Assembly (NCBI RefSeq): GCF_037265215.1
Contig: NZ_CP147737.1
Coordinates: 1,054,001 to 1,118,000 of the forward strand
Direction: 5' to 3'
Source of the DNA: Xenorhabdus griffiniae
Lineage (GTDB): Bacteria; Pseudomonadota; Gammaproteobacteria; Enterobacterales; Enterobacteriaceae
Length of the DNA stretch: 64,000 bases
The translations under genes were made by a program, and so were the position numbers. Shown one piece after another: positions 69-35,512 of the stretch. Below the pieces are notes generated by a model, which saw only the letters and a program-made list of their open reading frames with translations, had not been told where the DNA came from and did no database searches. Each line of letters starts with the position of its first letter. Positions within the stretch are counted from its first letter, which is position 1.

Positions 69-1148
69 CTATCTCATCACAGTCAAGCGTTTATGTTCCC
101 CACCTAACCCCATGCCTAGGTAGGTAGATAGCTCATTCTCTAGCATGTGAAGAGTGTTATGAATATCTTGGCCTATATATTCCATCGTAGAAGACAAACT
201 TCGATGCCCCAACACATTCTTTGTCAAATGCATATTACGGTCAGGGCTACGCATTAATGTGGTTGCTAACGTATGACGAAAGCGGTGTGGGCTAACTGGA
301 AAACCACATTCCGTAGAAAAACGCCGAAAGAATGATTTCACAGGTTGGCTATCAATCATTTTTGCTCTATCTACTTCTCTATCTGATAACCGATGTACAT
401 TGAAAAATATGTCATTAGGAGTAGCTCCTCTTAATACCATTTCATTTAACAAATTTTGCAATAGTGGTTTCAGTGGGCTTAATAAAGCTACTTGGTGCTC
501 ACAATGGTTTTTACTACTTTCGCTCCGTAAGAAAATGGCATTTTCTTCAAAATCAATATCTTTGATCCGAATATGAACTAATTGGTTTAAACGTATACCC
601 GTTAATCTAAATGTTTCCATTACAACAATCCAAAATCGTGTCGGGTATAATGCACAACAGCGATAAGTAGCTTGCTGTGCTGATAATTCCTTCTCTAGTT
701 GCGTAAACCTTTCAAAAACACGATACATAGTACGAAGCTGTGCTTCTGTAAAAACTTTCTTCCTTTTTATCCCTGGTTCAACCTGGCTATCAAAAAACGG
801 GTTATCTTTACTTGTTTCAGATAACAAACCTTTTTTTATCCAAAAGCTATATAGCACTTGCATATGTCTAGCTTTTGTATTCCAAGTTCTTTCTGCCACA
901 CCTCTAATATTTAACTCATGCCTACGCCAACGCAAAACATGTTTATGAGTTACTTCTTCTGTGTTTATTTGTATATTTTCTATTCCCCTTAAATACTTAA
1001 GAAATAGTCTAACCACCTTACGATACGTTTTTTCTGTATCTGGGCGCAGAACCTTTGAGTAAAAATACTCATCCAATAGCTCATACCAAATAGGATCATC
1101 TTTTTCTTGCTTTAAAGACATTTGTTTTTTCATAAGGAATACTTCCAT
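69..1148 (-). CDS. Tyrosine recombinase (XerC/phage integrase type)
   Basis: A 359-residue tyrosine recombinase, probably catalysing integration or excision of the element or resolution of multimers. An N-terminal SAM-like core-binding domain (about 25-115) is followed by the catalytic domain. Visible catalytic residues are the Arg in GIRLNQL, the Lys in SESSKN, the HRFRH box, the His in LGHRS and the Tyr in MEYIGQD, so it looks intact. A second ATG five codons in is an alternative start. Its position beside the TraI-like gene at the end of the backbone matches the terminal recombinase of PFGI-1/pKLC102-like ICEs; whether it is the true integrase is inference because no att site is visible. 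It is unrelated in detail to the recombinase at 7645-8568. Confidence 0.85.
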   Translation of the reverse strand: MEVFLMKKQMSLKQEKDDPIWYELLDEYFYSKVLRPDTEKTYRKVVRLFLKYLRGIENIQINTEEVTHKHVLRWRRHELNIRGVAERTWNTKARHMQVLYSFWIKKGLLSETSKDNPFFDSQVEPGIKRKKVFTEAQLRTMYRVFERFTQLEKELSAQQATYRCCALYPTRFWIVVMETFRLTGIRLNQLVHIRIKDIDFEENAIFLRSESSKNHCEHQVALLSPLKPLLQNLLNEMVLRGATPNDIFFNVHRLSDREVDRAKMIDSQPVKSFFRRFSTECGFPVSPHRFRHTLATTLMRSPDRNMHLTKNVLGHRSLSSTMEYIGQDIHNTLHMLENELSTYLGMGLGGEHKRLTVMR

Positions 1149-10728: not shown

Positions 10729-11574
10729 TTAGCTGTTATTAGGTAAGCTAATTAACACGCGGTCATTTGATATGATAAGAATTCTGTTTGAAAGAAAATC
10801 ATCACCTAACAGGCCATCAAAATCTATCCGTTCATCTGGAATTTGATAGATAGCCGCAGATAGCTTAATTCCATCAGGTGTTATAATAGTTTGCTTTGGG
10901 CAGGTCTGTGATAAATTAGCACACCCATCCTTTGAACGAGTAAAAAGCACCGTATGACTTGCACCAGTATCAATAACCATGCGGTTTATCTTCTTACCTT
11001 CAGAAGATAATACACTAATTTCTATTCCATTCCTTGTGCGAGTAAATGGAATAGATTGCCAACGATAGCCATAGGGAAGAGCTTTAAGATGGTCGGTTAT
11101 CGTCAGCATCTTTGATGCGTAGTTAATAACCAGCGTTTTGTTTTTGGCAACACCCAGCCCCAACACGCCATCGATGATAAGTTTTCCCTTATTATCAAAC
11201 ATGCCGTTCCCCCATGGTTTAAAGAGTTCAACTTCAACATCTGAAAGGTGTTCACCATTAACAGTCATATTGGCTGTCCTTGCCACTACAGTAGATTTAT
11301 CAACTCCAAAAACATCAACAGAATTTTGCACGGTTATTGTGTGATAATTCCGCTTTGGAAAAATCGAATCAAAGATAGATCGAGGGAGATAAAAAGCACC
11401 AGACGCCCCCGTATCAATTGAAAGTCTTTTAATCTCTTTCCCATTGATATTGAGCGAAACAGAAGGAGTTATATGTTCAAGGTAAGCAATTGGTGCAGTT
11501 ATATCTGCTTTTACTGCTTCAACTGGAATGATAATAAGGCACAACAACAGGTATGTATGCAAATTTTTATTCAT
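10729..11574 (-). CDS. Pepsin/retropepsin-type aspartyl protease of the RiPP locus
   Basis: A 281-residue exported aspartic protease. A signal peptide (about 1-23) is followed by two homologous lobes, each with a catalytic IDTGAS motif (Asp54 and Asp202) and a downstream GLLG-like strand (GVLGLG, DGLLGDDF), so one chain supplies both aspartates. Xye-type peptide clusters encode such proteases, presumed to process the exported peptide in the periplasm. Here it follows the second precursor and a remnant of a maturase gene, while a truncated copy of its own 5' end (15522-15689) lies in the first cluster. It appears to be the only intact copy. An alternative role is immunity by degrading the peptide. 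Confidence 0.8.
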   Translation of the reverse strand: MNKNLHTYLLLCLIIIPVEAVKADITAPIAYLEHITPSVSLNINGKEIKRLSIDTGASGAFYLPRSIFDSIFPKRNYHTITVQNSVDVFGVDKSTVVARTANMTVNGEHLSDVEVELFKPWGNGMFDNKGKLIIDGVLGLGVAKNKTLVINYASKMLTITDHLKALPYGYRWQSIPFTRTRNGIEISVLSSEGKKINRMVIDTGASHTVLFTRSKDGCANLSQTCPKQTIITPDGIKLSAAIYQIPDERIDFDGLLGDDFLSNRILIISNDRVLISLPNNS

Positions 11575-11606
11575 ATTAAAAACCCATTAAGAACAGTGGA
11601 TAATAT

Positions 11607-11675
11607 TTAATTCCAACTCCCCCCTACTTTAAAACATAGCAATGAACAGCTTAGATTACAAATCCGTTCTTGCAT
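11607..11675 (-). pseudogene. Remnant of a radical SAM maturase gene
   Basis: The 22-codon open frame reads ERICNLSCSLLCFKVGGS, aligning with ERCNLNCSYCYVFNMGS of the maturase at 15686-16864. At DNA level TGTAATCTAA.CTGTTCAT is shared. The third cluster Cys is shifted by one residue, and a stop follows shortly after. The fragment lies exactly where a maturase would start after the second precursor, so it is best read as what remains of a second copy of that gene. Confidence 0.75.
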
Positions 11676-11707
11676 TCACATAATAATCGAAAAAGACAGT
11701 TGATAAG

Positions 11708-11734
11708 AATTGTGTGGTCAATGACCACACAATT
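11708..11734. terminator. 13-bp perfect hairpin after precursor 2
   Basis: AATTGTGTGGTCA / TGACCACACAATT around a single A (about 11 bp once a loop is allowed), 14 nt after the precursor stop. The T content after it is modest, so it could be a leaky terminator or a 3' stabiliser that keeps precursor mRNA in excess over the protease. Confidence 0.6.
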
Positions 11735-11747
11735 ATATCACGTACTC

Positions 11748-11897
11748 TTATCGCCTATCCCATGTAGTTTTAAAAAATAGACCATCATCATCAGACGAAC
11801 CACCACGAACAGCATCAAGTAGTTCAGATGCTTTTTGACCCTTCTGGTTTTTCAGGTTTGCAGAATTTTCTTGAATCACTTTCTGTAGTTCTTTCAT
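11748..11897 (-). CDS. Precursor peptide 2 (xye-type, cyclophane RiPP)
   Basis: A 49-residue precursor missed by long-ORF searches. The leader MKELQKVIQENSANLKNQKG...LLDAVRGG (33 residues) ends in a double glycine suited to the C39 peptidase exporter. The 16-residue core is SSDDDGLFFKTTWDRR. Two aromatic-x-basic triads, FFK and WDR, separated by two residues, fit the three-residue cyclophane rule (aromatic ring joined to the third residue). AGGAT lies before the ATG. It has its own duplicated leader upstream and a hairpin downstream. The leader is almost identical to that of precursor 1 while the core has diverged, the usual pattern for paired RiPP precursors. Confidence 0.85.
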   Translation of the reverse strand: MKELQKVIQENSANLKNQKGQKASELLDAVRGGSSDDDGLFFKTTWDRR

Positions 11898-12157
11898 ATT
11901 AAGATCCTTAAAAAGATTGAAACAAAGAAGATAATAACGGAATTTACCATAACCTAATTTGTGTTTTATTTTGTTAGCCTACAAGAATTAATTTATTAAA
12001 ATCCATCTGTAAGCCACATTGTTTAATATATATTATTTCAGATTAAGATCAACATAATTTTCACATAAAAAACAAACATGTAACATTTGTAAAATATAAA
12101 CATATTAGCATAATATAATTAATATTATTAACGTTCAAAATTATAACTACAAGGTCA
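11898..12157 (-). promoter_or_regulatory. Duplicated leader/promoter region of precursor 2
   Basis: 260 bp of AT-rich noncoding DNA that aligns over about 230 bp with the region upstream of precursor 1 (17247-17480), including blocks such as AGATAA.AA.GGAATTTA and ACATGT.A.ATTT. Conservation of a long leader ahead of both precursors suggests shared regulation from a promoter far upstream of the start codon. No clear -35/-10 pair can be named. Confidence 0.6.
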
Positions 12158-14305
12158 TCAATCAATGTGTTTCAGTGATTGCAAATACTCGTGAGGGGTT
12201 GTAAATACACCGTTAACCATATCAAAAACTTTGTCGGCCACAGCGATAGCATCTGGTCGATGAGCTGCAAAAAGACGCGTTATTTTCATGGCCTTAATGG
12301 CTTCGTTTATTTTCCGCTCGTTTTCGATATCCAGAGCAGATGTGGATTCATCCAATATGAGAATTTTAGGTCTTCTATAAAGCGCCCGTGCAATGGAGAC
12401 TCGTTGTTTCTGTCCTCCTGATAACACGCTCCCCATATCCCCAACTCTAGAATTATAGCCATCTGGCATCATTTCTATTCCATCATGAATAGCGGCCATC
12501 CTGGCACATTCATGCATAAGTTCAATGTCTGGCCTTTCGGCAAAACCGGTAATATTTTCCTGTAATGATCCGGTAAACAAAAAATCATCCTGTAAAACAT
12601 AGGAAACATGCTTACGATAAGCCTCAAGGCCAATGCTAGATATAGGAACACCGTTAATTTTTATAATCCCTTCAGTCGGTTCAAGCAGTGAAGCAAGAAC
12701 ATGCAGCAATGTGGATTTACCACAGCCTGATGGACCTACAAACGCAACACTTTCTCCTGATTCAACAACAAAAGATAGTCTCTCAAAAATATAAGGTTCA
12801 TTAGCTGAGTAAGCAAAAGACAAAGATGATATTTCTACTTCCCCGTTAAATTCCACAGGTAAATTTTGAGAGGCATCAAAGTGCATGTTTTCGCTTTCGG
12901 TAAGGACTACATCGCTAAGGCGGTTTGTATGCATTGAAAGCATTTTAAATTCATAAACAGCATCACAAAAATTAATCGTCCTTTGGATGAACATATCAGC
13001 GTACACCATGAAAGCAAACAGAACACCAACAGTAAAAAAACCATTTTCAGTCAACTGTGCACCAATATAGACAACCAAACATGCTGACAATCCTGTGACA
13101 AACGCGCTAATTAGCCGAAAAACAAGATCAATTCGAAAACGCTTTATATTTGCAGCAATGTTTTCAGTTGAGAGGTTCAACCATTTTATTTTTCTGTTAG
13201 TGCTCAGACACAGAATTTTGATCGCTGAAATACCGCGAACGGTTTCTATAAAATGTGAACTTTGAGCGGCAGTTTTACTGATAGATTCAGCCAGTGCGAT
13301 TCTGTACATCCCAAAACAATACCATTTAATAAGAGCATAGAGCAGTGCCAGAAAAACTACACTAGCGCAAAGCGCTACGCTATAACTACTCATGACTACT
13401 AATAATGCAATTGTAACCACAGCATCAAGAATCGCATTTACCATACGCGCAGTAAATGCCTCCTGAATTTGGTTTAGGGATTGTAGGCGAGATACAACAT
13501 CACCTAACTGGCGCTTTCCAAAGTAGGTAACAGGCAGACTGATTAGTTTTTTCAAAAATCCTTCAGACCAACTTAATCCAATAGAATATTTAGCTGCGGT
13601 AATAATCCAGTCGCGAAGCCATGTCAGCAGCATTCGCATAAAAAGCAAGGCAACAACAGCGGCTGAGATAACATTAAGGGCAAACATATTACTCGTGCTA
13701 AGAATGTTATCTATAATGAACTGTGAAGAAGCGGGGATAAGCAGCGTAACAAGTTCTATAGTCGCTGATATTGCTATGAGTCGTGCTATCACAGCACCTT
13801 TACCTTCTATCCCTGCCAGCATATCTCTGATAGAAAGTGCTGAAGATACTTTTTTTCGCTCAAACGTAGCACTGGGTTTCATTTCAAGTGCTATACCAGT
13901 GAAGCAATCCGATAGTTCAGAAAGCTTTATACTGCGTTCGCCAACAGCTGGATCATGAATAATTGCGCCTTTTCGGGACAGTTTTTTAAGCACCACAAAA
14001 TGATTAAAAGACCAATGCAGGATACAAGGCAACGAAAGTGAATTCAGTTCTTCCAGTTCTACTTTTACGGGACAAGATGACAACCCCACTTTTTCACCTA
14101 CGGTCACTATTTCTTTAAGGCTCATGCCATGTTTTGAAACATCAAAAAGTTTCCGCATAGAAAGCAGATCAGTATTGAAACCATAATAACTTGCGATCAT
14201 AGCGATACAAGCAAGTCCACATTCTGAAACTTCAGACTGAATGATTACCGGAAGAGATTTCCCGACAGAAAACGTTGAAAAAAAATCTTTCACATATTTA
14301 TCCAT
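12158..14305 (-). CDS. Peptidase-containing ABC exporter (C39 peptidase, membrane domain, ATPase)
   Basis: A 715-residue bacteriocin-type exporter that removes double-glycine leaders and exports the peptide across the inner membrane. The N-terminal C39 peptidase has Gln23 and Cys29 (QSEVSECGLAC), His in FNHFVVL and Asp in IHDPAVGE. Transmembrane helices follow (about 160-430). The ATPase domain has Walker A GPSGCGKST, the signature LSGGQKQR, Walker B ILILDES and the AAHRP switch His. I start at MDKYVKDFF, five bases after the HlyD gene stop; the longer frame overlaps that gene. It works with the HlyD protein and probably a host TolC-like channel, and is the only exporter for both precursors. 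Confidence 0.92.
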   Translation of the reverse strand: MDKYVKDFFSTFSVGKSLPVIIQSEVSECGLACIAMIASYYGFNTDLLSMRKLFDVSKHGMSLKEIVTVGEKVGLSSCPVKVELEELNSLSLPCILHWSFNHFVVLKKLSRKGAIIHDPAVGERSIKLSELSDCFTGIALEMKPSATFERKKVSSALSIRDMLAGIEGKGAVIARLIAISATIELVTLLIPASSQFIIDNILSTSNMFALNVISAAVVALLFMRMLLTWLRDWIITAAKYSIGLSWSEGFLKKLISLPVTYFGKRQLGDVVSRLQSLNQIQEAFTARMVNAILDAVVTIALLVVMSSYSVALCASVVFLALLYALIKWYCFGMYRIALAESISKTAAQSSHFIETVRGISAIKILCLSTNRKIKWLNLSTENIAANIKRFRIDLVFRLISAFVTGLSACLVVYIGAQLTENGFFTVGVLFAFMVYADMFIQRTINFCDAVYEFKMLSMHTNRLSDVVLTESENMHFDASQNLPVEFNGEVEISSLSFAYSANEPYIFERLSFVVESGESVAFVGPSGCGKSTLLHVLASLLEPTEGIIKINGVPISSIGLEAYRKHVSYVLQDDFLFTGSLQENITGFAERPDIELMHECARMAAIHDGIEMMPDGYNSRVGDMGSVLSGGQKQRVSIARALYRRPKILILDESTSALDIENERKINEAIKAMKITRLFAAHRPDAIAVADKVFDMVNGVFTTPHEYLQSLKHID

Positions 14306-14309
14306 AAAT

Positions 14310-15491
14310 TTAATCAACCATTCTAAGCAGCCATCTATAAAGACGTTTTTCACCTGTTAAGATTGAGGCATCAACCTGCATTCCCTGTTTTAACGGTAAA
14401 CTCGAACGCTCTTCAGGAATGGCTATTACAGTAAAGTACATGTCATCCTCCCGCCTAATTGCAGCCTCTGATATTGAGGCAACTGTAGCAGTAAATTTTC
14501 CGTATCTTCTCCACGGATAAGCCGATACGCGTAATTTCACCTTCTGTCCAATTTTTATTTCACCTGCTGATTCAGCACCTACCTGGAGTCGGACAACAGG
14601 CATCGCGTCACTAGGTATAACTACGGCCAAAACATCTCCGCGCGTTACATTATCCCCAATCATCTTATCTACCCCAGCCACTCTTCCATTTATGGGACTA
14701 GTGATTTTTATTCGTTCAACGACATCCAAGTGTGCTAGGGATTGAGAAATTTGAGTAATTTCTTGATATACATCGTTTGTTTTTTCTTCTAATTTATGAG
14801 TTTTTATATCCATTTCAGTTTCAAGAGCGATGATATCAGCCTGCGTTTTGGTGATATTAACTAAAGTGTTTTGCATCTTTTCATCAGCCCGTAAGATTTC
14901 CTGCAGGGATTCATGAATCATCATTTCAGAAATGATCCCTTTTTTGCTGTATTTTACAAATGAGTTGTATTTCTTCTGTGATGCGGCAAAAGCGTTTCGA
15001 TTAATCAAAAGTAGTTCATGCAGTTGCTCCAACTCGTTTTTTTTATTAGCTATAGCGGTAGGTATTTTGATAAGAGCGCTTTTTTTCTCCTTCTCAAATA
15101 ATACTAATTTTTCAGTAAGTAATTGTTTTTTTTCTGTCAGCGCAGCACGTTCCCTTTGAGAGATCAACCCTGATTCAGTCTTTATCTCATGCGAAACTAC
15201 CATGATTTCCTGGCCTACGTTAACCTGTTGACCGTCAATGACTCCCAAACTCTCCGCTATACCATCCATCGGAGAAACGAGAGAAGATGCATTAGGATTA
15301 AAAATTATTCTTCCAGGAGCTTCTACATTAATCCCGTAAGATCCCCAAATGAGGCAGGAAAGCAGCATTACGCTAGTCGCAGCACTTAGAATAAGGGGGA
15401 AAGTTGTTGATTGAGGGATATTAAGGGTATGCCTACCAATCCATGTGTTTTTACGATGAAAAATAGCTTCTTTGCGAAATAATCCGTTCAC
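14310..15491 (-). CDS. HlyD-family membrane fusion protein
   Basis: A 393-residue periplasmic adaptor for peptide export. It begins with GTG, preceded by AAGGA at a good distance. A short cytoplasmic segment is followed by one membrane span (about 31-50), a split lipoyl/barrel-sandwich domain (VSPMDGIAESLGVIDGQQV near the start, ITSPINGRVAGVDKMIGDNV after the hairpin), a long coiled-coil hairpin (about 110-240) and a beta-barrel domain. It links the C39 exporter to an outer-membrane TolC-like channel, which is not encoded here. It lies between the protease remnant and the exporter gene with nearly abutting ends. Confidence 0.92.
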   Translation of the reverse strand: MNGLFRKEAIFHRKNTWIGRHTLNIPQSTTFPLILSAATSVMLLSCLIWGSYGINVEAPGRIIFNPNASSLVSPMDGIAESLGVIDGQQVNVGQEIMVVSHEIKTESGLISQRERAALTEKKQLLTEKLVLFEKEKKSALIKIPTAIANKKNELEQLHELLLINRNAFAASQKKYNSFVKYSKKGIISEMMIHESLQEILRADEKMQNTLVNITKTQADIIALETEMDIKTHKLEEKTNDVYQEITQISQSLAHLDVVERIKITSPINGRVAGVDKMIGDNVTRGDVLAVVIPSDAMPVVRLQVGAESAGEIKIGQKVKLRVSAYPWRRYGKFTATVASISEAAIRREDDMYFTVIAIPEERSSLPLKQGMQVDASILTGEKRLYRWLLRMVD

Positions 15492-15521
15492 CAGAAATCC
15501 TTAACTGTTATTAGTAATTAA

Positions 15522-15689
15522 TTAACAATCGGTTACTTCAATATCGATTACAAGCCTGTTAACCTCTTTACCGTTGATATTGATTGCGAAGAGGTTACAG
15601 ACTAAAGGTGAACAATCGGCGAGGTTTATTGCTTCAACTGAAATTATCGTAAGATCCTGAGCCACACATACACTCAGAACTTTATTCAT
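15522..15689 (-). pseudogene. Truncated aspartyl protease remnant
   Basis: A 55-codon frame whose ATG overlaps the maturase stop (ATGA). It resembles the first 55 residues of the protease at 10729-11574: MNK start, a degraded signal, then INGKEVNRLVID matching INGKEIKRLSID. The IDTGAS active site is replaced by IDIEVTDC and a stop. It marks the ancestral gene order precursor-maturase-protease-HlyD-exporter and shows that the protease of this copy was lost by internal deletion. Confidence 0.8.
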
Positions 15690-16864
15690 AATTCAGCAAT
15701 TCCGATGTTTTTTGCGAGTTCATTTTCACTCAGGCCAAGTTCCACAAGGTAAGCAGCCCCCCGTCCGAGTAATGCCGCCATTGTATCGCAATAAATCGTT
15801 TTATTATTAAAGGCATTATCTCGCGAATACCTGTTTACAGGTTTTCCGCCTGCACAAATTTTTTGCCAGATACATCCTTGGCAATCCACAGGTAAAGAGG
15901 ATTCAATTTTGTGAAATTCGCGCATGGGTTGACTGTTTACTATCTGAGCATAAGTTGCATCTGCAATGTTACCTATTGGTGTAAATATCTCTGAAACCGT
16001 TGAGCGCAAAGTATCATCAATGTAGATGTCACCAGTAGACGTAACCGTTATGGCTAAAGCTTCAAATCCTTCAGTCGGCGGCGTCACTCCCAATACTATG
16101 TATTTCGATGATCCAGCCAGTCTAGTGAAGTAACTGGATAAAATTCTTACATCACAATTAGGATCACTTTGTTCAAACCAAGCATCACAGACATCAATAA
16201 GAAAACGTTTAACTCCTTCTGTGTTGGTTGTATTTTCGTAATTGCTGTCAGGTAATAGAAAATCAAATCTTTTACACTGCATATCATGATAAAAGTGGTC
16301 AAAAAGTTCTTTACCACTGGCTTCGGGATCAATAACAGAAAGTATGGAGGGATAGTTAAGAATATTTCTTTCTTTCGCCGCTGTACACAATGCTTTATAT
16401 CCGTTTAAGGTTGCCTCATATGAGCTACGCCCTTTGTGATCGAGACGGTATTTGTCGTTTATGTGTTTCGGACCATCGATGGAAATGTTTACAGAAATAT
16501 TAAACTTTTCAAAAATGGCAATCCATTCATTGTTGATCAAGGTTGCGTTAGTCTGTAATGCAAAGCGCAACTCTGCATTCTTGTAATCTCCAGAATTGAG
16601 CGTTTCACATAGGTAAATTAAACGCTCTTTCTTGAGCATCAATGGTTCACCGCCATGCAAATCAATCTGTATTACGTCTGGGTTAACATCTTCAGCAACC
16701 CTTTCTAAAAAACCTTTCAACCCTATTATAGTGTTGTGGGAAATAACTGGAGCACTGTTTAGTGCAATATCACTTCCCATATTAAACACATAACAATATG
16801 AACAGTTTAGATTACAGCGCTCGCTTATTTTGAGAATTACTTCTAAGTGATTTATTTTATTCAT
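15686..16864 (-). CDS. Radical SAM/SPASM cyclophane peptide maturase (Xye/Grr type)
   Basis: A 392-residue radical SAM enzyme expected to cross-link an aromatic side chain to the beta-carbon of the residue two positions on in the precursor core. Cys17, Cys21 and Cys24 form the CxxxCxxC cluster motif (ERCNLNCSYC), HGGEP is the SAM-binding motif, and a C-terminal Cys-rich segment (CQGCIWQKICAGG, then Cys in YCDTM) resembles a SPASM/twitch auxiliary-cluster domain. I start at MNKINHLEV (ATG 16864); a TTG three codons earlier is less likely. It is the only intact maturase for two precursors, so it must accept both W-x-K/R and F-x-K triads if both are modified. Confidence 0.88.
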   Translation of the reverse strand: MNKINHLEVILKISERCNLNCSYCYVFNMGSDIALNSAPVISHNTIIGLKGFLERVAEDVNPDVIQIDLHGGEPLMLKKERLIYLCETLNSGDYKNAELRFALQTNATLINNEWIAIFEKFNISVNISIDGPKHINDKYRLDHKGRSSYEATLNGYKALCTAAKERNILNYPSILSVIDPEASGKELFDHFYHDMQCKRFDFLLPDSNYENTTNTEGVKRFLIDVCDAWFEQSDPNCDVRILSSYFTRLAGSSKYIVLGVTPPTEGFEALAITVTSTGDIYIDDTLRSTVSEIFTPIGNIADATYAQIVNSQPMREFHKIESSLPVDCQGCIWQKICAGGKPVNRYSRDNAFNNKTIYCDTMAALLGRGAAYLVELGLSENELAKNIGIAEL

Positions 16865-16929
16865 ATTTAGCAAGCCATCAAGTAAGTTGGTAAAAACATG
16901 TTGTCATCGACCACACGTTGACGTAAAGA

Positions 16930-17084
16930 TCCGCCTTCTATGAAGGCGGAATTAATTTCACCCCAAAAGGACGTACTAATAAAATACCTAAAAATAAATC
17001 TCTACCAATTCTGATAATTTCAAATCTAAAGGCTAATAAAAGGCAGAGTCAAAACATTGCTGACCACCTCCACATAAGGTGGTC
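16930..17084. promoter_or_regulatory. Two hairpins between precursor 1 and the maturase
   Basis: In the 232-bp gap are perfect 8-bp stems at 17062-17069/17077-17084 (GACCACCT) and 16930-16937/16943-16950 (TCCGCCTT). Neither has a strong T tract. They could attenuate read-through, so that precursor is made in excess over the maturase and exporter. Confidence 0.55.
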
Positions 17085-17096
17085 TTCAGTTAAGAA

Positions 17097-17246
17097 TCAA
17101 AAGCTCTTTTTCCAATCAAGTTTGAACCATGTTTCAGCAGTAGATGCGCCACCACGAACAAAATCAAGTAATTCAGACGCTTTTTGACCTTTCTGATTTT
17201 TCAGGTTTGTAGAATTTTCTTGAATCACTTTTTGTAATTCTTTCAT
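17097..17246 (-). CDS. Precursor peptide 1 (xye-type, cyclophane RiPP)
   Basis: A 49-residue precursor directly upstream of the maturase. The leader MKELQKVIQENSTNLKNQKG...LLDFVRGG differs from that of precursor 2 at only two positions and ends in the double glycine. The core is ASTAETWFKLDWKKSF with two triads, WFK and WKK, separated by two residues, the same layout as FFK/WDR in precursor 2. AGGAT precedes the ATG. The predicted product is a small peptide with two strained cyclophanes, exported after C39 cleavage, probably a bacteriocin-like antibiotic. Activity is inference from the family. Confidence 0.88.
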   Translation of the reverse strand: MKELQKVIQENSTNLKNQKGQKASELLDFVRGGASTAETWFKLDWKKSF

Positions 17247-20340: not shown

Positions 20341-21855
20341 TTACTTTTTCAATTTATTAATAGCCGCCTCCCCACCTTTACCCCCTGCTTGCTTAGATTC
20401 GGTAGTTCCTCTTTGCATTGCTCCAGTTTCCAATGTTCCACCGACTTTAACACCTGCCCAGGATAACGCTCCCATCCAAACTGCGGGTAATACTAAGAAC
20501 ATTGTTCCCATGACAAAGTTGATAATAATATCATCCGACGTATTTTGTATTCCCATCATATTCCAACGGCTATGTGTATCTGAACTATATAAAGCTTCGA
20601 TCATCCAGCTATCCAACCAACGAGCTAATTCCCACCAGAACGTTAAAAAATTCAAGGCAAAAATTACAAATGTTAATGTAATTGCTGTCTTAAAATCGTA
20701 GGCTGAAAACATTAAGATCAAAGGCAGCATTACATATATAGCCATCAACAATAGGCTTTGAACCATAGGCAGTGATTGCCGCATTGCGTCTAGTGCTGGA
20801 AATATTGCCAATGAACCCAGAACCTGCCCTACCATAGATCCGGCACGTGTCGCCGTACTTGTTATAGTGAAGAAATCAGCATTACCGCCATACCCCATAT
20901 ACACAGAATCTCCCTGAGACACTTGTAAGCTGGCTGGGCTGACTAAACGGCGAATAACAGCTTCCTGAAACTCTTTTGAATCTTCATTTATCAATCTCAT
21001 CGCTGATTTTGCGCGTAACCACATCCCTGGATCAGCTTGTTCCATTACTAATTTTCTAAGCCCAATTTTTTCATCTGACCACCACTGAGCACATGTAGGA
21101 TACCCTCCAACTCCAGTATTAGAATAACCATCGTCACGCTTAGAAACCCATGGAAAACCCTCTCTTGGAGTACGTGACTGTAAAGTTTGATAGGCTCCGT
21201 TTAGAAACGTTCGAGAACCTAGCCACTCCACATCTCTCAAAACACTTTCACTCGACTCCTTACCCTGGTCTTGACTCTTCCAGTCATATAATGCAAGTGA
21301 GTAACAGTCATTAGTAAAATCCTGTAATGCGGCTACTAATGAACCATTTTTTATATAACTATGCTGAACTTCAAAACGAACTTGGCGTAGATCCGGACGA
21401 CACGGAATAGTTGCAACAGAAGCTTGAGTAATCCCCTTAGATAATTTATGGACCAACATCCACCATATTGGCGCTTTTGCCGTTTTATCGTCTAAAGATG
21501 AAATAGTGCCTTTAAAACCAGAATCTTCTGGTTTTGCTGCTGTCCATGTTCCACAATATTTGCTTCTGCTTGAATCAATTTGCATAGTACTAAGACTAAC
21601 GTTAAAAAGTGGAACACAACAAAATACCATTACGACGAAAGCACCATAAATTGCATTTTCAATCCGAACAATAGATAAAGTTCCTTTATTTCCTTCGTCC
21701 TCCCCTTCTTCACGTACTTTTAACCATATACCCGCCACTTTAAATAGTAGTGGAACAACAAAAAGCCCTGTACTGAGTAGTATGTTCCATAAACCATTAT
21801 TAATTACCCAGCCCAATAAAGTCAGAAAATACTCAAGATAGTTATTTGTGGTCAT
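20341..21855 (-). CDS. traG: TraG-like conjugal transfer protein
   Basis: A 504-residue membrane protein resembling the N-terminal TraG domain of MPF_G-type systems, implicated in mating-pair formation or stabilisation. There are hydrophobic spans near 10-45, 75-100 and several between about 330 and 470 (LLLMAIYVMLPLILMFSAYDF, TFVIFALNFLTFW, FVMGTMFLVLPAVWMGALSW), with a periplasmic Cys-containing domain between. A glycine/lysine-rich tail ends KQAGGKGGEAAINKLKK. It is last in the transfer operon and overlaps nothing; the adjacent ISL3 element may mark where downstream genes were displaced. Confidence 0.8.
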   Translation of the reverse strand: MTTNNYLEYFLTLLGWVINNGLWNILLSTGLFVVPLLFKVAGIWLKVREEGEDEGNKGTLSIVRIENAIYGAFVVMVFCCVPLFNVSLSTMQIDSSRSKYCGTWTAAKPEDSGFKGTISSLDDKTAKAPIWWMLVHKLSKGITQASVATIPCRPDLRQVRFEVQHSYIKNGSLVAALQDFTNDCYSLALYDWKSQDQGKESSESVLRDVEWLGSRTFLNGAYQTLQSRTPREGFPWVSKRDDGYSNTGVGGYPTCAQWWSDEKIGLRKLVMEQADPGMWLRAKSAMRLINEDSKEFQEAVIRRLVSPASLQVSQGDSVYMGYGGNADFFTITSTATRAGSMVGQVLGSLAIFPALDAMRQSLPMVQSLLLMAIYVMLPLILMFSAYDFKTAITLTFVIFALNFLTFWWELARWLDSWMIEALYSSDTHSRWNMMGIQNTSDDIIINFVMGTMFLVLPAVWMGALSWAGVKVGGTLETGAMQRGTTESKQAGGKGGEAAINKLKK

Positions 21856-21857
21856 AA

Positions 21858-22178
21858 TTACTCTCCATTGTCATTGTTTATCCAAATAACCGCTTCACTG
21901 ACCAGGGCGAACAATACGAACATTATCACTACACGTTTAAAAGGTTGTTGTGATTCTAAGGGTACTTTTCCTGATTTCCATAAATTCCATAAGAAGACGC
22001 CAATCAATGCATATACAACCACGCGCCATAATAGTGAAAAATAGCGCCAGCGATACATTAATTGGTTAAAACCTCCGGCTAAATCAGGGTTTATTAAACT
22101 TAGGTGAGCAACAAAGAGCAATCCCATCATAAGAATAACAATGAAAACCATCCATTTTAAAAATATTTTAATTTTCAT
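21858..22178 (-). CDS. Small inner-membrane conjugation protein
   Basis: A 106-residue protein with three predicted membrane spans (about 8-28, 45-65, 82-100). A short frame of this kind precedes traG in PFGI-1-type ICEs and is uncharacterised. Its start overlaps the PFL_4711-like gene stop (ATGA), supporting operon membership. Confidence 0.7.
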   Translation of the reverse strand: MKIKIFLKWMVFIVILMMGLLFVAHLSLINPDLAGGFNQLMYRWRYFSLLWRVVVYALIGVFLWNLWKSGKVPLESQQPFKRVVIMFVLFALVSEAVIWINNDNGE

Positions 22179-23587
22179 TTTCTATTTTCTTCCGTAGCAG
22201 AAATACCCAATGAATTTACTCGTTTATCTGTGTTATCGTGAGATTGAGTCTGTGGGTTAGCTAAAGTTCTTTGATGGTCGCGCTCAATAATAGTCAAAAC
22301 AGTATTATTAGAAATTTCTCTTCGCAGTTCCATTTCGGTTTTTAGTGCATTGATTTCACGATCAAGAATATCAATCCGGCGATCACTCTCTTTAACAGCT
22401 TGTGATAAGTTAGCTGCATTAGGTTCTGATTGTCCGGTCATTAGCATCCTGCGCATAGTTAGCGCCAATTCAATTGTGTCTGACATAGCTAATTCGCCAG
22501 CTAAACGTTGTACTAGTGCACCGTTATCAGGATCTCTCCTTAATGACTGAATAACACCTCGTGTGACTATCAAGCTACCAGTTTTTAACTTAGATAGATT
22601 TTCAGTTGTAGGGGAAATATTACCGTTGACCAGTTTTACTAATTGCTCTTGATTATCTTTAGCTGTCTTTTCAATCACTGGAGCAAAACCAGTTCCAGCG
22701 ACGCTACTTCCAGGCTGATTTTCTGCTGTACCATCTGCACATTGGCTAGTATCTGTACAAGTGCGAATTGATTGATCACCCAAAATTTTCACAACAGTTT
22801 GTGCGGCTTCTTCACTATTTTTAAACCTCTGACAGGCTCCCCCTGAGCACTGACCTGTAGAAATAGTTTGATCACTGTTGACTGGTAAGTGATTCATCAT
22901 ATTAAAGCCAGCTTTAGCCAGATCACGCGTTGGTTGGATAGCTTTTTGCCCTTTTCCTCCTTTTTTTTGCCCTCCAATCCAAGGAACTCCTGCTTCCCCT
23001 TTAGCGCTATTAAGCTGATTGTTTGTCTTGACGGCATCATTACTACCATTATTCACTAATGTTTTGGCTTCTTCCATAACCGCTGCTTGTGACCATTTGC
23101 TGTTATCAGAGAAATCCATCAATCGCTTGGACAAGTTCTGACAATTAAATTGCGCTTTATCAAAAGCAACATTGGCCTGCAAAACTCCATTAGTCAGCAT
23201 TTCGTACAATCCTGGGTTAGCTCGTTGAATAATTAACCCAGGGAGACTTGCTACAGCTCCTGTTGCTCCTTGAACAATCTCCCCCATCAAGTTTTTAAAT
23301 CCATCAGTGATACCATTTAATTGGTTACTAATCGTAGTTTTTAAATCGAAATTTCCACACATCAAATCATTGGACCATCCAATTCCCATTCCAACTCGCT
23401 GCATAGTACTTCGGCTAGGCGGCTGAGATAGAACAGTGCCTCCACCAATCGTGTAGAACAATTTATCTGATACAGCACCACTCACATTTTTACCGTAACC
23501 TATTTTATTATCTTCCCAAGCAGAAGCAGAACCCCAGAGAAATAAAACCCCCATCAATACAGATTGCGAAATAATTTTCTTATTCAT
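22175..23587 (-). CDS. PFL_4711-family ICE protein (TraH-like)
   Basis: A 470-residue exported protein. The signal peptide (about 1-23, ending ASAW) is followed by GGGTVLSQPPSRSTMQRVGMGIGWSNDLMCGNFDLKTTI, typical of the TIGR03755-type family found between the TraU- and TraG-like genes. It is probably a periplasmic or outer-membrane part of the mating channel. A Cys-rich stretch (CSGGACQRF, CTDTSQCADG) in the middle and a coiled-coil C-terminus are visible. Confidence 0.85.
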   Translation of the reverse strand: MNKKIISQSVLMGVLFLWGSASAWEDNKIGYGKNVSGAVSDKLFYTIGGGTVLSQPPSRSTMQRVGMGIGWSNDLMCGNFDLKTTISNQLNGITDGFKNLMGEIVQGATGAVASLPGLIIQRANPGLYEMLTNGVLQANVAFDKAQFNCQNLSKRLMDFSDNSKWSQAAVMEEAKTLVNNGSNDAVKTNNQLNSAKGEAGVPWIGGQKKGGKGQKAIQPTRDLAKAGFNMMNHLPVNSDQTISTGQCSGGACQRFKNSEEAAQTVVKILGDQSIRTCTDTSQCADGTAENQPGSSVAGTGFAPVIEKTAKDNQEQLVKLVNGNISPTTENLSKLKTGSLIVTRGVIQSLRRDPDNGALVQRLAGELAMSDTIELALTMRRMLMTGQSEPNAANLSQAVKESDRRIDILDREINALKTEMELRREISNNTVLTIIERDHQRTLANPQTQSHDNTDKRVNSLGISATEENRK

Positions 23588-23600
23588 TTTTATTTTTTCC

Positions 23601-24563
23601 TTAAAAATTAGTACTACTCAGGAATTTCTGTCCACGACGTTTACAACAACTATATGGTTGCCAAAGTGCCCAAGCGTAATTACCGTTTTCTGCAACTATT
23701 CCAGATTTATCAGGAAAAACAGCGCAGCTATTACTAAGTTGAGGCGATAATCTCTGCCATTTATGATTTTTAGTACCAGTATTTTCTTGCACCGGATCAG
23801 GAGGCCAATAACCAGGCGTTTTATTTGCTTTTAGGGGTGAATAAATATGGGGCTGACCTGTACGAGTTATAATATCAGCGGCACGCTGAGCTACGACCGC
23901 AGCAGCCTTATAATCGTCTTGTTGTGTAACAAATCCGCTGCGAGGATAAACATTTCCCCACATATTTCCTGTATATTGCGAGCCAATCTCTCTCTTGCCA
24001 GGAATAATAGCTTCAGGATATAGAGTTTCGGGAATACCCGAACGCCATGGAAAACTGTCTAATGTACTCAGAAAATAGGGAAATAACGGCGTTGCAGCAC
24101 CGCTACAAGAATATCCGGGGATGCTCTTTCCAATTAGAGATGATCCAGGATGACCAATCGCATCGGCATATTTAAAATGTAGATTAGTTTTCCTCTTTGA
24201 TGTTTTCTGCTCATTATGCCCACCTCCCGCATATACACCAGATAATGCTCCTGTAATAGCGTTTTCCAAACCTCCAGAGGCTCCACTTACCATAGACATT
24301 TCTACCCATGGATTTCCGCTTGGTGAGTTGTATATGGATACAACAACTTCTGGAATAAAGTGTTCTACCTTTACTGAAGTTCTGACTTTGCACCCCCAGG
24401 GAGTACAGAACAGCCAATAGCAGATACCTTTTATTCGCCAACTAATACACGATGGAGATATAGAGCTGGCTATGATACTAGCGCTATTAATACTAGCTGC
24501 AGCCAGCGGAATATTAATTGCCCCTAGTAGCATAGAAGCCACTAGTAGCTTCAATTTTTTCAT
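23601..24563 (-). CDS. PFL_4710-family TraU-like protein
   Basis: A 320-residue exported, Cys-rich protein. The signal peptide is about 1-22. Conserved CISWRIKGICYWLFCTPWGCKV near the N-terminus and a C-terminal WALWQPYSCCKRRGQKFL motif are typical of TraU-like conjugation proteins with many disulfides. It acts in the periplasm in mating-pair formation. Its start overlaps the stop of the upstream PFL_4709-like gene, so the two are coupled. Confidence 0.88.
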   Translation of the reverse strand: MKKLKLLVASMLLGAINIPLAAASINSASIIASSISPSCISWRIKGICYWLFCTPWGCKVRTSVKVEHFIPEVVVSIYNSPSGNPWVEMSMVSGASGGLENAITGALSGVYAGGGHNEQKTSKRKTNLHFKYADAIGHPGSSLIGKSIPGYSCSGAATPLFPYFLSTLDSFPWRSGIPETLYPEAIIPGKREIGSQYTGNMWGNVYPRSGFVTQQDDYKAAAVVAQRAADIITRTGQPHIYSPLKANKTPGYWPPDPVQENTGTKNHKWQRLSPQLSNSCAVFPDKSGIVAENGNYAWALWQPYSCCKRRGQKFLSSTNF

Positions 24564-24973
24564 TAATTATTCCTCCTACGATATGTATCCACCAAGATTT
24601 GAGCACGGATAGCATCAGTACTGCCATACACAACATAGCGATCATCTATTACAATAGCTGGATATTTTTTTATACCCAATTCCCAAGCACGGATAATTCC
24701 CTGGTATGCTGTGACAATATCCTTTTCTTTTTCCCTCCATTCTGGCGATTGTAATAATCCAGTTATTAAAGAAGAGTTACTTGTATTTACAGAAATATTC
24801 ATAGTGTTAAACCAGTTTTCTGAAAACATATCAGGAGCATCAAGCCAAACAACTTGAATATCGTTTCTAGAGTCGCTTCTACTTGGTGGGTTTTCATGAT
24901 CGGTGTAAATGACAGTTGACGCTTGAGCTATTGATGTCAAAGCTATTACGATAAAAACAACCAGCATTTTCAT
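24563..24973 (-). CDS. PFL_4709-family protein (TrbC-like)
   Basis: A 136-residue exported protein (signal peptide about 1-20, ending AQAS) of the family encoded just before the TraU-like gene. Conserved AWELGIKKYPAIVIDDRYVVYG near the C-terminus resembles a thioredoxin-like TrbC domain but lacks a CxxC. I start at the ATG at 24973 (AGGG eight bases upstream) rather than the TTG in the longer frame. Confidence 0.8.
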   Translation of the reverse strand: MKMLVVFIVIALTSIAQASTVIYTDHENPPSRSDSRNDIQVVWLDAPDMFSENWFNTMNISVNTSNSSLITGLLQSPEWREKEKDIVTAYQGIIRAWELGIKKYPAIVIDDRYVVYGSTDAIRAQILVDTYRRRNN

Positions 24974-25160
24974 TAGAATTGCCCTCAACTATTAAGTTGA
25001 AACAAGATTGCAATAACTTTCCAATAAAATCAGTAAATAATTCATAATCCAATAAATATAATTTTTTATTAAAAAAATAAATAATAATCAATTGGTTATA
25101 AGCAATGAATAAAAACACCCATTGCTTAATTTGTAGTCATTCAATTTGGTAGCTATTCAT

Positions 25161-25277
25161 TTAACCTAGATTATTACCTTTACTTTCTGGTTCATGAGGA
25201 GGTAATTTTTCATCCTCCCGATACTCTAACCATACCAAATTATTAAGATCTTTTTCATATTCTTCTTTATTTATCAT
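25161..25277 (-). CDS. Small acidic protein after the autotransporter gene
   Basis: A 38-codon frame starting MINKEEYEKDLNNLVW and ending ESKGNNLG, beginning 15 nt after the autotransporter stop with AGGAT upstream. Highly charged. It may be part of the same cargo transcript. There is no family assignment, and support is spacing only. Confidence 0.35.
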   Translation of the reverse strand: MINKEEYEKDLNNLVWLEYREDEKLPPHEPESKGNNLG

Positions 25278-25292
25278 GATATTAAATCCTTA

Positions 25293-27932
25293 TCAGAATC
25301 GATACCTAACATTAAACAAACCGTTAATACCTTGTTTTTCCCCTATATAACCTGTGAATTTAAATTCGCCACTAAAATTAGATTTTTCGCCAAAATCGAC
25401 ACCAATTGATGCAAACCCACTACCTCCTTTCGAAGATAAATCACTAACCCTCATTCCTTCAATAGTTCCTTTTGATTTACCATCAAACTCATATTGGTAG
25501 CCTACTCCAGTATTTAAAGTAATATTTTCCGTAATCTTATTATGTAATAACACCCCTACTTTCATTTGATGAGAGTTAATTGCATCAAATTTAATTTTTT
25601 CATGACCAAGTACAGTTTTAATATTTACCATATCATGATTAATATGCGTATACTGATAATCACCATGAACAGTTAAGTTTTTTCTACCACTAACCTTAAA
25701 TTTTTTATTAATTCCGACATGAGACCCAAAATATGATGAGTCACTATTATATTGACTCATTATATTCTGATTTACTCCGAAATCATGTGATTTGAAATCA
25801 TAACTTAATTTCCCAACTCTTAATGAACCTGTGATTATCAGATCGTCAAAATTTTTTCTTTGCACTAATAACCCTGCACCTCGATAATTTACACTTCCTT
25901 TTCCTTTAATTATTGGTAAACGGCTTTGATTGTATGAAGTGTATGATGCATTTCCGGCCTCAAAAAATACTCCTAGTGAGGAATTTATTTTATCAGAATA
26001 AATAGCACTCCCAACTAAAAGATTAGCTGTTATTAGGTTCAGTTTGTTTCCTATATTAAAACGATTCTTGCCTGATTCAATTAACGCAAAAGGCTCTATG
26101 TTCATACCTTTTAATTTAACTTTTGTGACCAAACTATCATTAGCAACTAAAATTCCAGCATTTCTCCCAAACAAATAAGCTGTTGTTTGCGGATTTAACC
26201 CTAATTTTGATTCAGGTTTTTGCTCCGGCTCAGGCTGTGGTTCTGGCTCCGGCTCAGGTTGTGGTTCTGGCTCCGGCTCAGGTTGTGGTTCTGGCTCCGG
26301 CTCAGGTTGTGGTTCTGGCTCCGGCTCAGGCTGTGGTTCTGGCTCCGGCTCAGGCTGTGGTTCTGGCTCCGGCTCAGGTTGTGGTTCTGGCTCCGGTTCA
26401 GGTTGTGGTTCTGGCTCCGGTTCAGGCTGTGGTTCTGGCTCCGGTTCAGGTTGTGGTTCTGGCTCCGGTTCAGGTTGTGGTTCTGGCTCCGGTTCAGGTT
26501 GTGGTTCTGGCTCCGGTTCAGGTTGTGGTTCTGGCTCCGGCTCAGGTTGTGGTTCTGGCTCCGGCTTAAGTGGAATCACGTTAACAATGATAGATTCTTT
26601 GCCATTTTCTTTTTTTTGTTTTTCTAACCCAAATGTTAATAAAGTCGCTGTACCTAATGTTGTCTCTGAATTAACGAGTTTTACATCTCCTATTACATTA
26701 CTCATTAGCGTAACTATACCGCCATTTACTAGCTTTGAGCCTTTATGAATACCATCAACTGTTACTGTTGATTTATTCATATCGATAGTATCAATTGTGT
26801 TGAGTAAAACATCTTCATCTTTTACATTTTCATTTAGAAAAAATTTATAAACTTCAAATCCTGATACAGATTTCAACTTCAGTGGGTCTGCCCTAAAATT
26901 AAGCACATTTCCTGTCAACCTATCTCTATCACCGAAGTTTCGACCAGCTAAAATTGTTGAGCGCTCTGGAGCATTAAACTCAATATGACCATCCACAGTT
27001 ATGTTCACACCATTTATGTCCTGAGAGTGAGATGTTTTGATACCTAAGATGTTTACGCTGGAGTTAAAAATGACATCATTTAGATGCACGAAAACTGAGG
27101 TATAAGTGGGAGTTATACTTGAAATTAAACCTGTAATATCTACTAAATTGTTAAAAATTGATTTTTCAATTCTTACTAAATTATTTTCATTATTACCTTT
27201 ACTGGCTAAATTCATTGCCCCATAAATTCTGGTGTAACCATTAAAAATAGAATTTTTGATATTAATTTTATTATCAATTAAACTTGCACTACCTATGTTA
27301 GCAGCATAACCACCCAGAAATAGAGCATATTTATCAAATTGTGATTGTTCAATATCAATCAAATTACTCCTCAAAAAGGCATTATCTCTAGAACTTTCTC
27401 CACCATATGCTCCCCGTATCTCAACCTCGTTCATTAGATGGGAATTTTTAACCGAAACAACAGAATTTTCTATTGTAGAATTAGCGCTTCCTTTAGTAAA
27501 TGTTCCCGTTAAATCAGCGTTACCTCTAATTTTTACTCCATCTAATAACACATTATTCTCTTTAGCGTACAGGCTGTTTCCAGAATGGATATAAGCCCCC
27601 GATGAAGTTAAATTTCCAATTTCGCTATTAGATATAAATACATTATTATTTCCAATGACATTATCACCATGTATTGCCACGGTATTTCCACCGTACAATA
27701 TGAAGTTTTTATCTGACACAACCTCCTGCATCATTAAATTATTATTACCCATGCCGTTTAGTTTAGTTTTTCGGGAGTAGCCCGCCATAAATTTTCCATC
27801 CAAATCTTTTTCAACCACACAATTATTATTGTGCGTTCTTTCTATTTCAGAACCACACTCTACAGCTAATATCTCACCACTAAAAATAGCAGAGCTGATT
27901 AAAATAGAAAGCAATGTCCTTCTATTTTTCAT
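25293..27932 (-). CDS. Type V autotransporter with Pro-Glu-Gln repeat stalk
   Basis: An 879-residue outer-membrane autotransporter. The signal peptide (about 1-23) is followed by a passenger rich in N/S/T/G (about 25-460) with parallel-beta-helix-like turns, then 14 tandem PEPEPQPE octapeptides (about 455-570) and a C-terminal beta-barrel domain (about 600-879) ending FNVRYRF, the usual terminal aromatic. The repeat stalk probably projects or spans the cell wall. Likely role: adhesin or immune-contact surface protein. It interrupts the conjugation operon between the 131-residue protein and the PFL_4709-like gene and is therefore cargo. Confidence 0.88.
26231..26566 (-). repeat. 14 x 24-bp tandem repeat encoding PEPEPQPE
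   Basis: Fourteen in-frame 24-bp units differing mainly at two synonymous positions (GGCTC/GGTTC and GGCTG/GGTTG). Being a multiple of three, copy number can change without loss of frame, so it tunes stalk length. The block of units sharing GGTTC (26396-26525) suggests recent internal expansion. The long open frames in other phases across it are artefacts. Confidence 0.9.
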
Positions 27933-28003
27933 AGAACAAGTTCACCTTACTGTTTAATTTAAAATATATAATCCCATGATGAACTGTATGGGGGTACGAT
28001 TCA
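27933..28003 (-). repeat. Exported-gene leader cassette, copy 1 (autotransporter)
   Basis: Leader with a hairpin around GTACCCCCATAC, then ATTAAACAGTAAGGTGAAC and the autotransporter ATG. It matches copies at 28101-28174 and 39595-39679. The GTAAGGTGAA segment supplies the ribosome-binding site. Confidence 0.75.
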
Positions 28004-28040
28004 CCATGGCCATTTTTGTAGTCCTCTGAAACTCCTATAA

Positions 28041-28100
28041 TTAACAAAAACACTCGATCATAGTCATAAAAACTGCTAATTTAAATAGCGTAGTTTTCAT
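28041..28100 (-). pseudogene. Truncated 5' end of a fimbrial-like gene
   Basis: A 19-codon frame MKTTLFKLAVFMTMIECFC identical in its first dozen positions (bar one) to MKTRLFKLAVFTT of the gene at 39680-39982, and preceded by the same leader cassette. It is a remnant of a paralogue whose body was replaced when the autotransporter gene arrived. Confidence 0.75.
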
Positions 28101-28174
28101 AGAATTAGTTCACCTTACTGTTTAATTTAATGATATGAAGCTACATGGTGAGTCGTATGGGGGTACGACTCACC
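28101..28174 (-). repeat. Exported-gene leader cassette, copy 2, with 11-bp hairpin
   Basis: Contains the perfect stem GGTGAGTCGTA / TACGACTCACC (28147-28174) directly after the stop of the upstream transfer gene, so it may also terminate the transfer transcript. The rest, ATTAAATTAAACAGTAAGGTGAAC, is shared with copies 1 and 3. Confidence 0.75.
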
Positions 28175-28180
28175 GCTTTG

Positions 28181-31724: not shown

Positions 31725-31735
31725 GTGTTTTCTCC

Positions 31736-34745: not shown

Positions 34746-34759
34746 AATTTACATTCCTT

Positions 34760-35110: not shown

Positions 35111-35126
35111 TTCGATCTTTTCTCTA

Positions 35127-35498: not shown

Positions 35499-35512
35499 AA
35501 AGTTTTCTCTCA

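What the first reader, a model, noticed from the sequence alone, without database searches (positions are those of the whole stretch)
10729..17246. Cyclophane-type RiPP locus with two unannotated precursors carried on an ICE
Two 49-codon precursors with nearly identical double-glycine leaders and divergent cores flank one radical SAM/SPASM maturase, one HlyD protein, one C39-peptidase exporter and one two-lobed aspartyl protease. Each core has two aromatic-x-basic triads separated by two residues (WFK..WKK; FFK..WDR), fitting three-residue cyclophane chemistry. Putting this antibiotic-like pathway on a conjugative element would spread both product and export.
Basis: partly seen in the sequence, partly recalled or inferred. 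Interest (0 to 1): 0.85.

Follow-up and report, generated by a model that had tools for sequence, protein, structure and literature searches.

The report
Mobile two-precursor cyclophane peptide operon
A transferable DNA element in a nematode-symbiont bacterium carries genes that should make and export two small ring-stapled peptides, one resembling known antibiotics that block outer-membrane assembly; it is a recognisable but unnamed variant of a known family.

Summary
On a PFGI-1-type integrative conjugative element at tRNA-Phe of a Xenorhabdus griffiniae genome lies an operon with one XyeB-type radical SAM/SPASM maturase, HlyD adaptor, C39 exporter, bilobed aspartyl protease and two 49-aa double-glycine precursors. 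The maturase passes the NCBIfam XyeB cut-off (473.5 vs 450) but lies in a separate, fully supported clade. Precursors of that clade fail the XyeA model (0 of 6 tested pass; 4 of 4 canonical pass): a 5-7 residue linker follows GG, then typically W-x-[KRN]-x-x-W-x-[KR]-x-F, not GG-WVNAFxxWxKxF. The layout fits a tandem duplication with complementary losses: one protease copy survives only as a 55-codon pseudogene, and the second maturase is gone (weak remnant). Precursor A2 keeps the C-terminal WxKxF shared with darobactins, so I predict a BamA-binding peptide. A1 lacks it (…WDRR) but looks constrained (8 synonymous, 1 non-synonymous difference between two strains), so it is probably a working second product. 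Cyclophanes, activity, target and transfer are inferred, not shown. Verdict: new variant of a known kind (triceptide/XYE). I recognised no immunity gene. Non-chromosomal XYE has a precedent on an X. bovienii megaplasmid.

The parts
17097..17246 (-). Precursor A2: 33-residue leader ending VRGG, linker ASTAET, core WFKLDWKKSF
   Evidence: ORF; alignment; homologues
17062..17084 (-). RNA hairpin just after the A2 stop, candidate attenuator
   Evidence: 66-nt stretch, z -3.03; not flagged by the terminator scan
15686..16864 (-). B: XyeB-type radical SAM/SPASM maturase (ATG at 16864; the ORF opens at TTG 16873)
15522..15689 (-). Remnant of a second protease gene (both ends similar to the intact gene, middle missing; internal stop in strain VH1)
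14310..15491 (-). D: HlyD-type periplasmic adaptor
12158..14353 (-). E: C39 peptidase-ABC exporter
11748..11897 (-). Precursor A1: leader ending VRGG, linker SSDDDGL, core FFKTTWDRR; no terminal Phe
11708..11734 (-). RNA hairpin just after the A1 stop
   Evidence: 66-nt stretch, z -4.98; not flagged by the terminator scan
11629..11660 (-). Putative decayed remnant of a second maturase gene (35 aligned columns over the radical SAM Cys-motif codons)
   Evidence: local score 42, best of 500 mononucleotide shuffles 37; looked for after the eye had caught it; weak
10729..11574 (-). C: bilobed aspartyl protease (two DTGAS motifs, signal-peptide-like N-terminus by eye)
69..1148 (-). Tyrosine recombinase at the tRNA-Phe end of the ICE (NCBIfam hits, all below cut-off)
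   Evidence: tRNA-Phe just left of the window
20341..63947 (-). ICE conjugation and maintenance region; within it TIGR03755, TIGR03744, TIGR03752, TIGR03754, TIGR03759, DNA topoisomerase III and TIGR03764 pass cut-off

Best explanation
This is a mobile XYE-type triceptide operon of an unnamed sub-branch. Inferred mechanism: each precursor is bound through its shared leader by the single XyeB enzyme, which joins the aromatic residue of each triad to the beta carbon of the third residue, giving two three-residue cyclophanes per core. The C39 exporter cuts after GG and, with the HlyD adaptor, exports the peptide; the bilobed protease probably trims the linker. A2 (…WFKLDWKKSF) mimics the OMP beta-signal and blocks BamA, as darobactins do; A1 (…FFKTTWDRR) is a second, selected product that lost the terminal Phe and probably has a different target range. 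The layout arose by tandem duplication of A-B-C, then loss of one maturase and one protease. Shown by sequence: genes, family of B, clade, leader/core pattern, duplication of A and C, ICE. Indicated: constraint on A1, the lost second maturase. Inferred: crosslinks, trimming, target, activity, transfer.
For: XyeB model passed. Clade of 11 rows at 100/100 support; 13 rows at SH-aLRT 100. All 8 non-griffiniae clade precursors seen (6 distinct cores) fit Wx[KRN]xxWx[KR]xF. C39, HlyD and bilobed protease present. Duplication: leader and upstream DNA 78% identical; protease remnant similar at both ends; maturase remnant in the A1-C spacer (weak); the 3 other loci of the clade that I could read have the order A-B-C-D-E and one detected precursor. 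A1: 8 synonymous against 1 non-synonymous difference, Fisher p 1.8e-5. Darobactin A is WNWSKSF and B WNWTKRF, beta-signal mimics on BamA beta1 (PMC13067283, passages). Xenorceptides act on BamA (PMC12971899, review, passages). XncB forms Trp-Arg/Asn and Phe-Asn rings (PMC11002830, passages).
Against: No biochemistry. Lys as acceptor for a XyeB enzyme was not in the passages I read (Trp-Lys is stated there for darobactin). The XyeB score is only just above cut-off. WxKxF is short, so BamA as target is a motif argument. A1's constraint rests on nine differences between two strains, and its high local divergence (dS 0.30) may mean recombination. The linker is not unique to the clade: a non-clade locus (L030) also has residues between its SG and WVN. 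I recognised no immunity gene.
Confidence: 0.72

Rival explanations
1. A1 is a decaying duplicate; the operon makes only A2.
For: A1 lacks the first W and the terminal Phe found in all 8 non-griffiniae precursors of the clade seen. The third precursor of strain VH1 has DG for GG and a single triad, so copies here do decay. Remnants suggest that the operon has been shedding duplicates.
Against: Protein kept with 1 non-synonymous and 8 synonymous differences between strains; both triads, GG site, similar upstream region and a downstream hairpin present.
Confidence: 0.3
2. The products are signals or fitness peptides for the element rather than antibiotics.
For: No immunity gene recognised beside the operon; A1 has a strongly charged core; the carrier is a conjugative element that also holds a ccdAB pair.
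Against: Closest characterised relatives are antibacterial, and the C-terminus of A2 matches BamA ligands.
Confidence: 0.15
3. The enzyme of this clade makes a different crosslink (another aromatic position or an ether), so it is not a triceptide maturase in the strict sense.
For: Long stem (0.59 changes per site) and a score just over the family cut-off; darobactin's enzyme makes an ether link as well (PMC13067283, passages).
Against: The two next-best models, far below their cut-offs, are also cyclophane-forming enzymes (YhhB, FxsB), and the i, i+2 triads are retained in the clade.
Confidence: 0.13

Closest known systems
XYE triceptides / xenorceptides (XyeA-XyeB; XncA-XncB of Xenorhabdus nematophila)
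   Same: Maturase family TIGR04496, double-glycine leader, HlyD, C39-ABC, bilobed aspartyl protease; A-B-C-D-E order in the 3 clade relatives read and in several canonical loci; a canonical copy lies in the same genome.
   Different: 48% maturase identity to the X. nematophila protein and 49% to the genome's own canonical copy; precursors fail TIGR04495; linker after GG; two triads two residues apart; two precursors; on an ICE.
Darobactins (DarA/DarE) and dynobactins
   Same: C-terminal W-x-K-x-F shared by darobactins and A2; the same genome carries darobactin and dynobactin-type maturases.
   Different: Maturase far from DarE (83.9 bits against 650) and DynA (116.9 against 450); C39 exporter and protease; no W-x-W start.
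GrrM/OscB, FxsB and YhhB triceptide maturases
   Same: Cyclophane-forming radical SAM/SPASM enzymes.
   Different: Scores far below their cut-offs: 93.1/310, 190.4/370, 251.1/445; no glycine-rich repeat precursor.
XYE locus on the Xenorhabdus bovienii CS03 megaplasmid
   Same: XYE operon on a non-chromosomal replicon.
   Different: Canonical annotated xyeA and xyeB (maturase 44% identical), one annotated precursor; plasmid typed non-mobilizable.

Membership tests
XYE triceptide (maturase) | XyeB equivalog model TIGR04496 at or above cut-off | tested here: met
   473.5 vs 450 bits
XYE triceptide (precursor) | XyeA model TIGR04495 at or above cut-off (33 bits) | tested here: not met
   no hit for either window precursor; 0 of 6 clade precursors pass (two score 16.4 and 11.8), 4 of 4 canonical pass
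Triceptide | aromatic-x-x motifs for i, i+2 rings in the core | tested here: met
   two per precursor; conserved in the clade
Triceptide | actual aryl to beta-carbon crosslink | not testable with these tools
   needs mass spectrometry and NMR
Xenorceptide (canonical core) | core of the WVNAFxxWxKxF type directly after GG, as in the own-genome canonical copy | tested here: not met
   linker of 6-7 residues and a two-residue spacer
Darobactin/xenorceptide-like BamA ligand | C-terminal WxKxF | tested here: met
   A2 ends WKKSF; A1 ends WDRR and does not meet it
Darobactin/xenorceptide-like BamA ligand | BamA binding | not testable with these tools
   no assay
Darobactin | DarE model | tested here: not met
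   83.9 vs 650 bits
Grr/Osc system | GrrM/OscB model | tested here: not met
   93.1 vs 310 bits
PFGI-1-type ICE | conjugation proteins and ParB | tested here: met
   TIGR03744, 03752, 03754, 03755, 03759, 03764 all over cut-off
PFGI-1-type ICE | integrase at the tRNA end | tested here: inconclusive
   ORF 69-1148 hits tyrosine recombinase models, all below cut-off; a second integrase at 7645-8679 passes Pfam PF12835
PFGI-1-type ICE | tRNA attachment repeats | tested here: met
   tRNA-Phe 3' end repeated 66.5 kb downstream
PFGI-1-type ICE | excision and transfer | not testable with these tools
   no assay

The most novel reading that the evidence does not exclude
The element spreads a two-peptide weapon: a compact two-ring BamA blocker (A2) plus a second two-ring peptide (A1), duplicated from it, freed from the BamA signature and held by selection because it hits another target or BamA variants that escape A2; one promiscuous maturase serves both, and the whole sub-branch is a separate triceptide class.
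Probability: 0.25. Interest if true: 0.75.

Novelty: new variant of a known kind. Interest (0 to 1): 0.5.

Why it matters
BamA-directed cyclophane peptides are among the few new routes against Gram-negative bacteria. Here is a sub-branch that the standard precursor model misses, with a shorter two-ring core and, in one species, a natural set of divergent cores on one maturase. That makes substrate tolerance and the need for the terminal WxKxF directly testable. It also shows such a pathway on a conjugative element, in a genome that holds three other maturases of darobactin, dynobactin and xenorceptide type, which raises the question of how hosts survive without a recognised linked immunity gene.

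Tried and rejected
Grr, Fxs, Yhh, DarE and DynA membership: rejected on scores. Phage origin: 74 phage-collection records match the maturase; the 8 listed are 24-26% identical, and those with a named product are sulfatase maturases or radical SAM proteins. Plasmid relatives: 16 of 72,556 records share short matches in the exporter gene, none covers 80% of the operon; by protein, 209 records match the maturase, all below 60% identity, 20 listed. Solved structures: nearest chain is ChlB radical SAM domain 9gm3 (E 4.9e-45); no useful match for the protease. Base composition does not set the operon apart (37.7% G+C against 38.2% for the window). ICE carriage as a clade-wide trait: not supported by the three other loci that I could read (L017, L070, L018/L071), whose neighbours look chromosomal, with transposase-like ORFs near L070; this is my reading of ORF starts, not a family search. 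Contexts of the X. khoisanae, X. stockiae and Photorhabdus members were not fetched. Paper searches: no listing or passage that I saw describes this sub-branch, but the primary triceptide and xenorceptide papers did not turn up in the held library, so novelty in print is not established. The held X. griffiniae genome paper (PMC11566119, passages) names darobactin as a RiPP; 'xenorceptide' and 'radical' do not occur in its main text.

Rows dropped: one search used 41 of the 120 listed (of 452 found) homologues plus 4 locus translations; one search used 36 homologues, leaving out 5 of those 41 (mostly long branches) and the locus rows. L022 and L025 were left out of the protease alignment because their stated stretches held a stop. 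In some searches both precursor references were off by one codon at the ends or held the stop; one search repeats the NCBIfam test with right ends. The VH1 third precursor lacked its first Met.
Full report
Place and host. The window is part of a 4.77 Mb single-contig genome. The genome marked 'same species' (G009) is Xenorhabdus griffiniae VH1 by its record title and contig length. It carries the same operon with a 99% identical maturase and 97.4% identical DNA over 5.6 kb, so the host is X. griffiniae.

The element. NCBIfam models for integrating conjugative elements pass their cut-offs: TIGR03744, TIGR03752, TIGR03754 (TraD), TIGR03755, TIGR03759 and TIGR03764 (ParB). A tRNA-Phe gene ends 150 bp left of the window, next to a recombinase ORF at 69-1148 whose model hits stay below cut-off. 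The 3' end of the tRNA recurs exactly at 1120353, 1194571 and 1298656 of the genome; ARAGORN sees no intact tRNA at these three. Two more places match with two mismatches. The element holding the finding is therefore about 66.5 kb, the first of what look like three segments in tandem (inference).

The operon (minus strand): A2 17097-17246, B 15686-16864, protease remnant 15522-15689, D 14310-15491, E 12158-14353, A1 11748-11897, C 10729-11574. B scores 473.5 bits on the XyeB model (cut-off 450); the two next-best models are also cyclophane-forming enzymes, well below their cut-offs. The cysteines of the radical SAM motif and SPASM part are invariant in 22 aligned sequences. In 14 aligned proteases the first D-T-G is invariant, and the second varies in its third letter in one.

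A separate sub-branch. Eleven maturases including the window's form one side of a branch with 100/100 support; with two locus rows added, 13 at SH-aLRT 100 on a stem of 0.59 changes per site. The X. griffiniae chromosome also has a canonical XYE operon (49% identical maturase, 728.5 bits). Of 30 genomes searched in the genus, 8 have a maturase at E <= 1e-60: the two X. griffiniae genomes have the sub-branch type, 7 have the canonical type, and one has both. Of 392 genomes drawn from the family, 10 match at that level, 4 of them (two X. griffiniae, G097, G330) at 57% identity or more.

Precursors. The canonical precursors read in Xenorhabdus, Photorhabdus, Yersinia, Serratia, Sodalis and Vibrio loci have GG followed at once by W(V/I)N, for example GGWVNAFANWSKSF. 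The sub-branch has [IV]RGG, a 5-7 residue linker, then two triads: WVNFTWNKSF, WVRASWTKSF, WVRVGWTRTF, WVRVGWTKSF, WVKFGWKKKF, WVNLHWSKSF and, here, WFKLDWKKSF. All 8 non-griffiniae sequences seen fit Wx[KRN]xxWx[KR]xF. Against a clean divide: a non-clade locus (L030, an Aquidulcibacter MAG) has a linker before WVN, and a distant one (L061) has WFRAYLRWSRSF after GGG. The XyeA model recognises 4 of 4 canonical precursors tested and 0 of 6 sub-branch ones; two of the six give hits below cut-off, the window's two none. Of 9 homologues found, 5 carry a source name, each 'hypothetical protein'.

How two precursors arose. Of 27 sources compared by tblastn with three precursor queries, 20 show one precursor, 5 none, and 2 more than one; both of these are X. 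griffiniae (window and VH1). More divergent extra precursors could be missed. Leader and upstream DNA of A1 and A2 are 78% identical over 323 columns, ending at the GG codons. The 55-codon ORF after B matches the intact protease gene near its start and at its stop region, so I read it as an internally deleted copy; VH1 has an internal stop in it. The A1-C spacer aligns over 35 columns with the start of B, score 42 against a best of 37 in 500 mononucleotide shuffles, and VH1's spacer scores 44. I looked because the likeness caught my eye; it is suggestive, not strong. Together these fit a tandem duplication of A-B-C, loss of one B and gutting of the other C. VH1 has a third precursor upstream of A2 (VRDG…SWLKSLD). 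In the window the DNA similar to VH1 ends at about 17734 and resumes at 20299; between stand ORFs that I read as a methylase and a transposase (no family search).

Is A1 alive? Between window and VH1, A1 has 8 synonymous and 1 non-synonymous differences (Fisher p 1.8e-5); B 17.3 and 3.7, D 11 and 10, E 50 and 16, C 26 and 20, remnant 1 and 4, A2 0.5 and 3.5 with an unchanged core. Against this reading: nine differences from two strains, and raised local divergence (dS 0.30).

Mechanism. From passages: XncB makes Trp-Arg/Asn and Phe-Asn rings (PMC11002830); darobactin A is WNWSKSF with a Trp-Lys bond and mimics the OMP beta-signal (PMC13067283); cluster I darobactin precursors share WNWxKxF (PMC9055067); xenorceptides remodel BamA (PMC12971899, a review). 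I therefore infer two cyclophanes per core, C39 cleavage at GG, export, and trimming of the linker by C. A2 with its WKKSF end should act on BamA; A1 with its WDRR end should not do so in the same way. RNA hairpins after A2 and A1 (z -3.03 and -4.98) may let precursors be made in excess (inference); the stretch after the canonical precursor gives z -1.65, and the terminator scan, which found 7 sites against 4.4 expected, did not flag the two.

Immunity. One BamA gene passes the family cut-off in the genome, at 3874128-3876443, outside the element. None of the neighbouring ORFs that I scanned suggests immunity; I made no dedicated search.

Relation to the known. The system works like, and by maturase is, an XYE triceptide system; by precursor model it is not XyeA. 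A canonical XYE locus lies on the X. bovienii CS03 megaplasmid, so carriage off the chromosome is not new. I file it as a new variant of a known kind.

Noticed in passing
L074:4967-6253 (-) and 10888-11001 (-), same genome: Darobactin locus: DarE over cut-off (734.6 vs 650) and a precursor piece, cut by the end of the fetched stretch, ending AWNWSKGFQEL that passes the darobactin model (46.8 vs 45).
   Followed up: partly
L073:7725-8921 (+) and 10376-10543 (+), same genome: Dynobactin-type maturase (586.2 vs 450 bits) with a transposase-like ORF (my reading) between it and a 55-aa candidate precursor ending WDGNIYKYSF; with darobactin, canonical XYE and the ICE operon, four maturases of related peptide families in one genome.
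   Followed up: partly
G000:C1 1053826, 1120353, 1194571, 1298656: tRNA-Phe 3' end repeated three more times downstream: looks like a tandem array of islands.
   Followed up: partly
9489-10106 (+): CcdA/CcdB toxin-antitoxin pair beside the operon.
   Followed up: no
L016:8991-9128 (+): Third, odd precursor in strain VH1 (DG for GG, single triad); its leader shares KIIHENSANLKN with VH1's A2, as if by gene conversion.
   Followed up: partly
L017:10001-14455: The Providencia alcalifaciens relative looks broken: matches to maturase, adaptor and exporter are interrupted or partial.
   Followed up: partly
25293-27932 (-): Protein with a long PEPQPE repeat that reads like an autotransporter (by eye); no NCBIfam hit at E <= 1e-5.
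   Followed up: no
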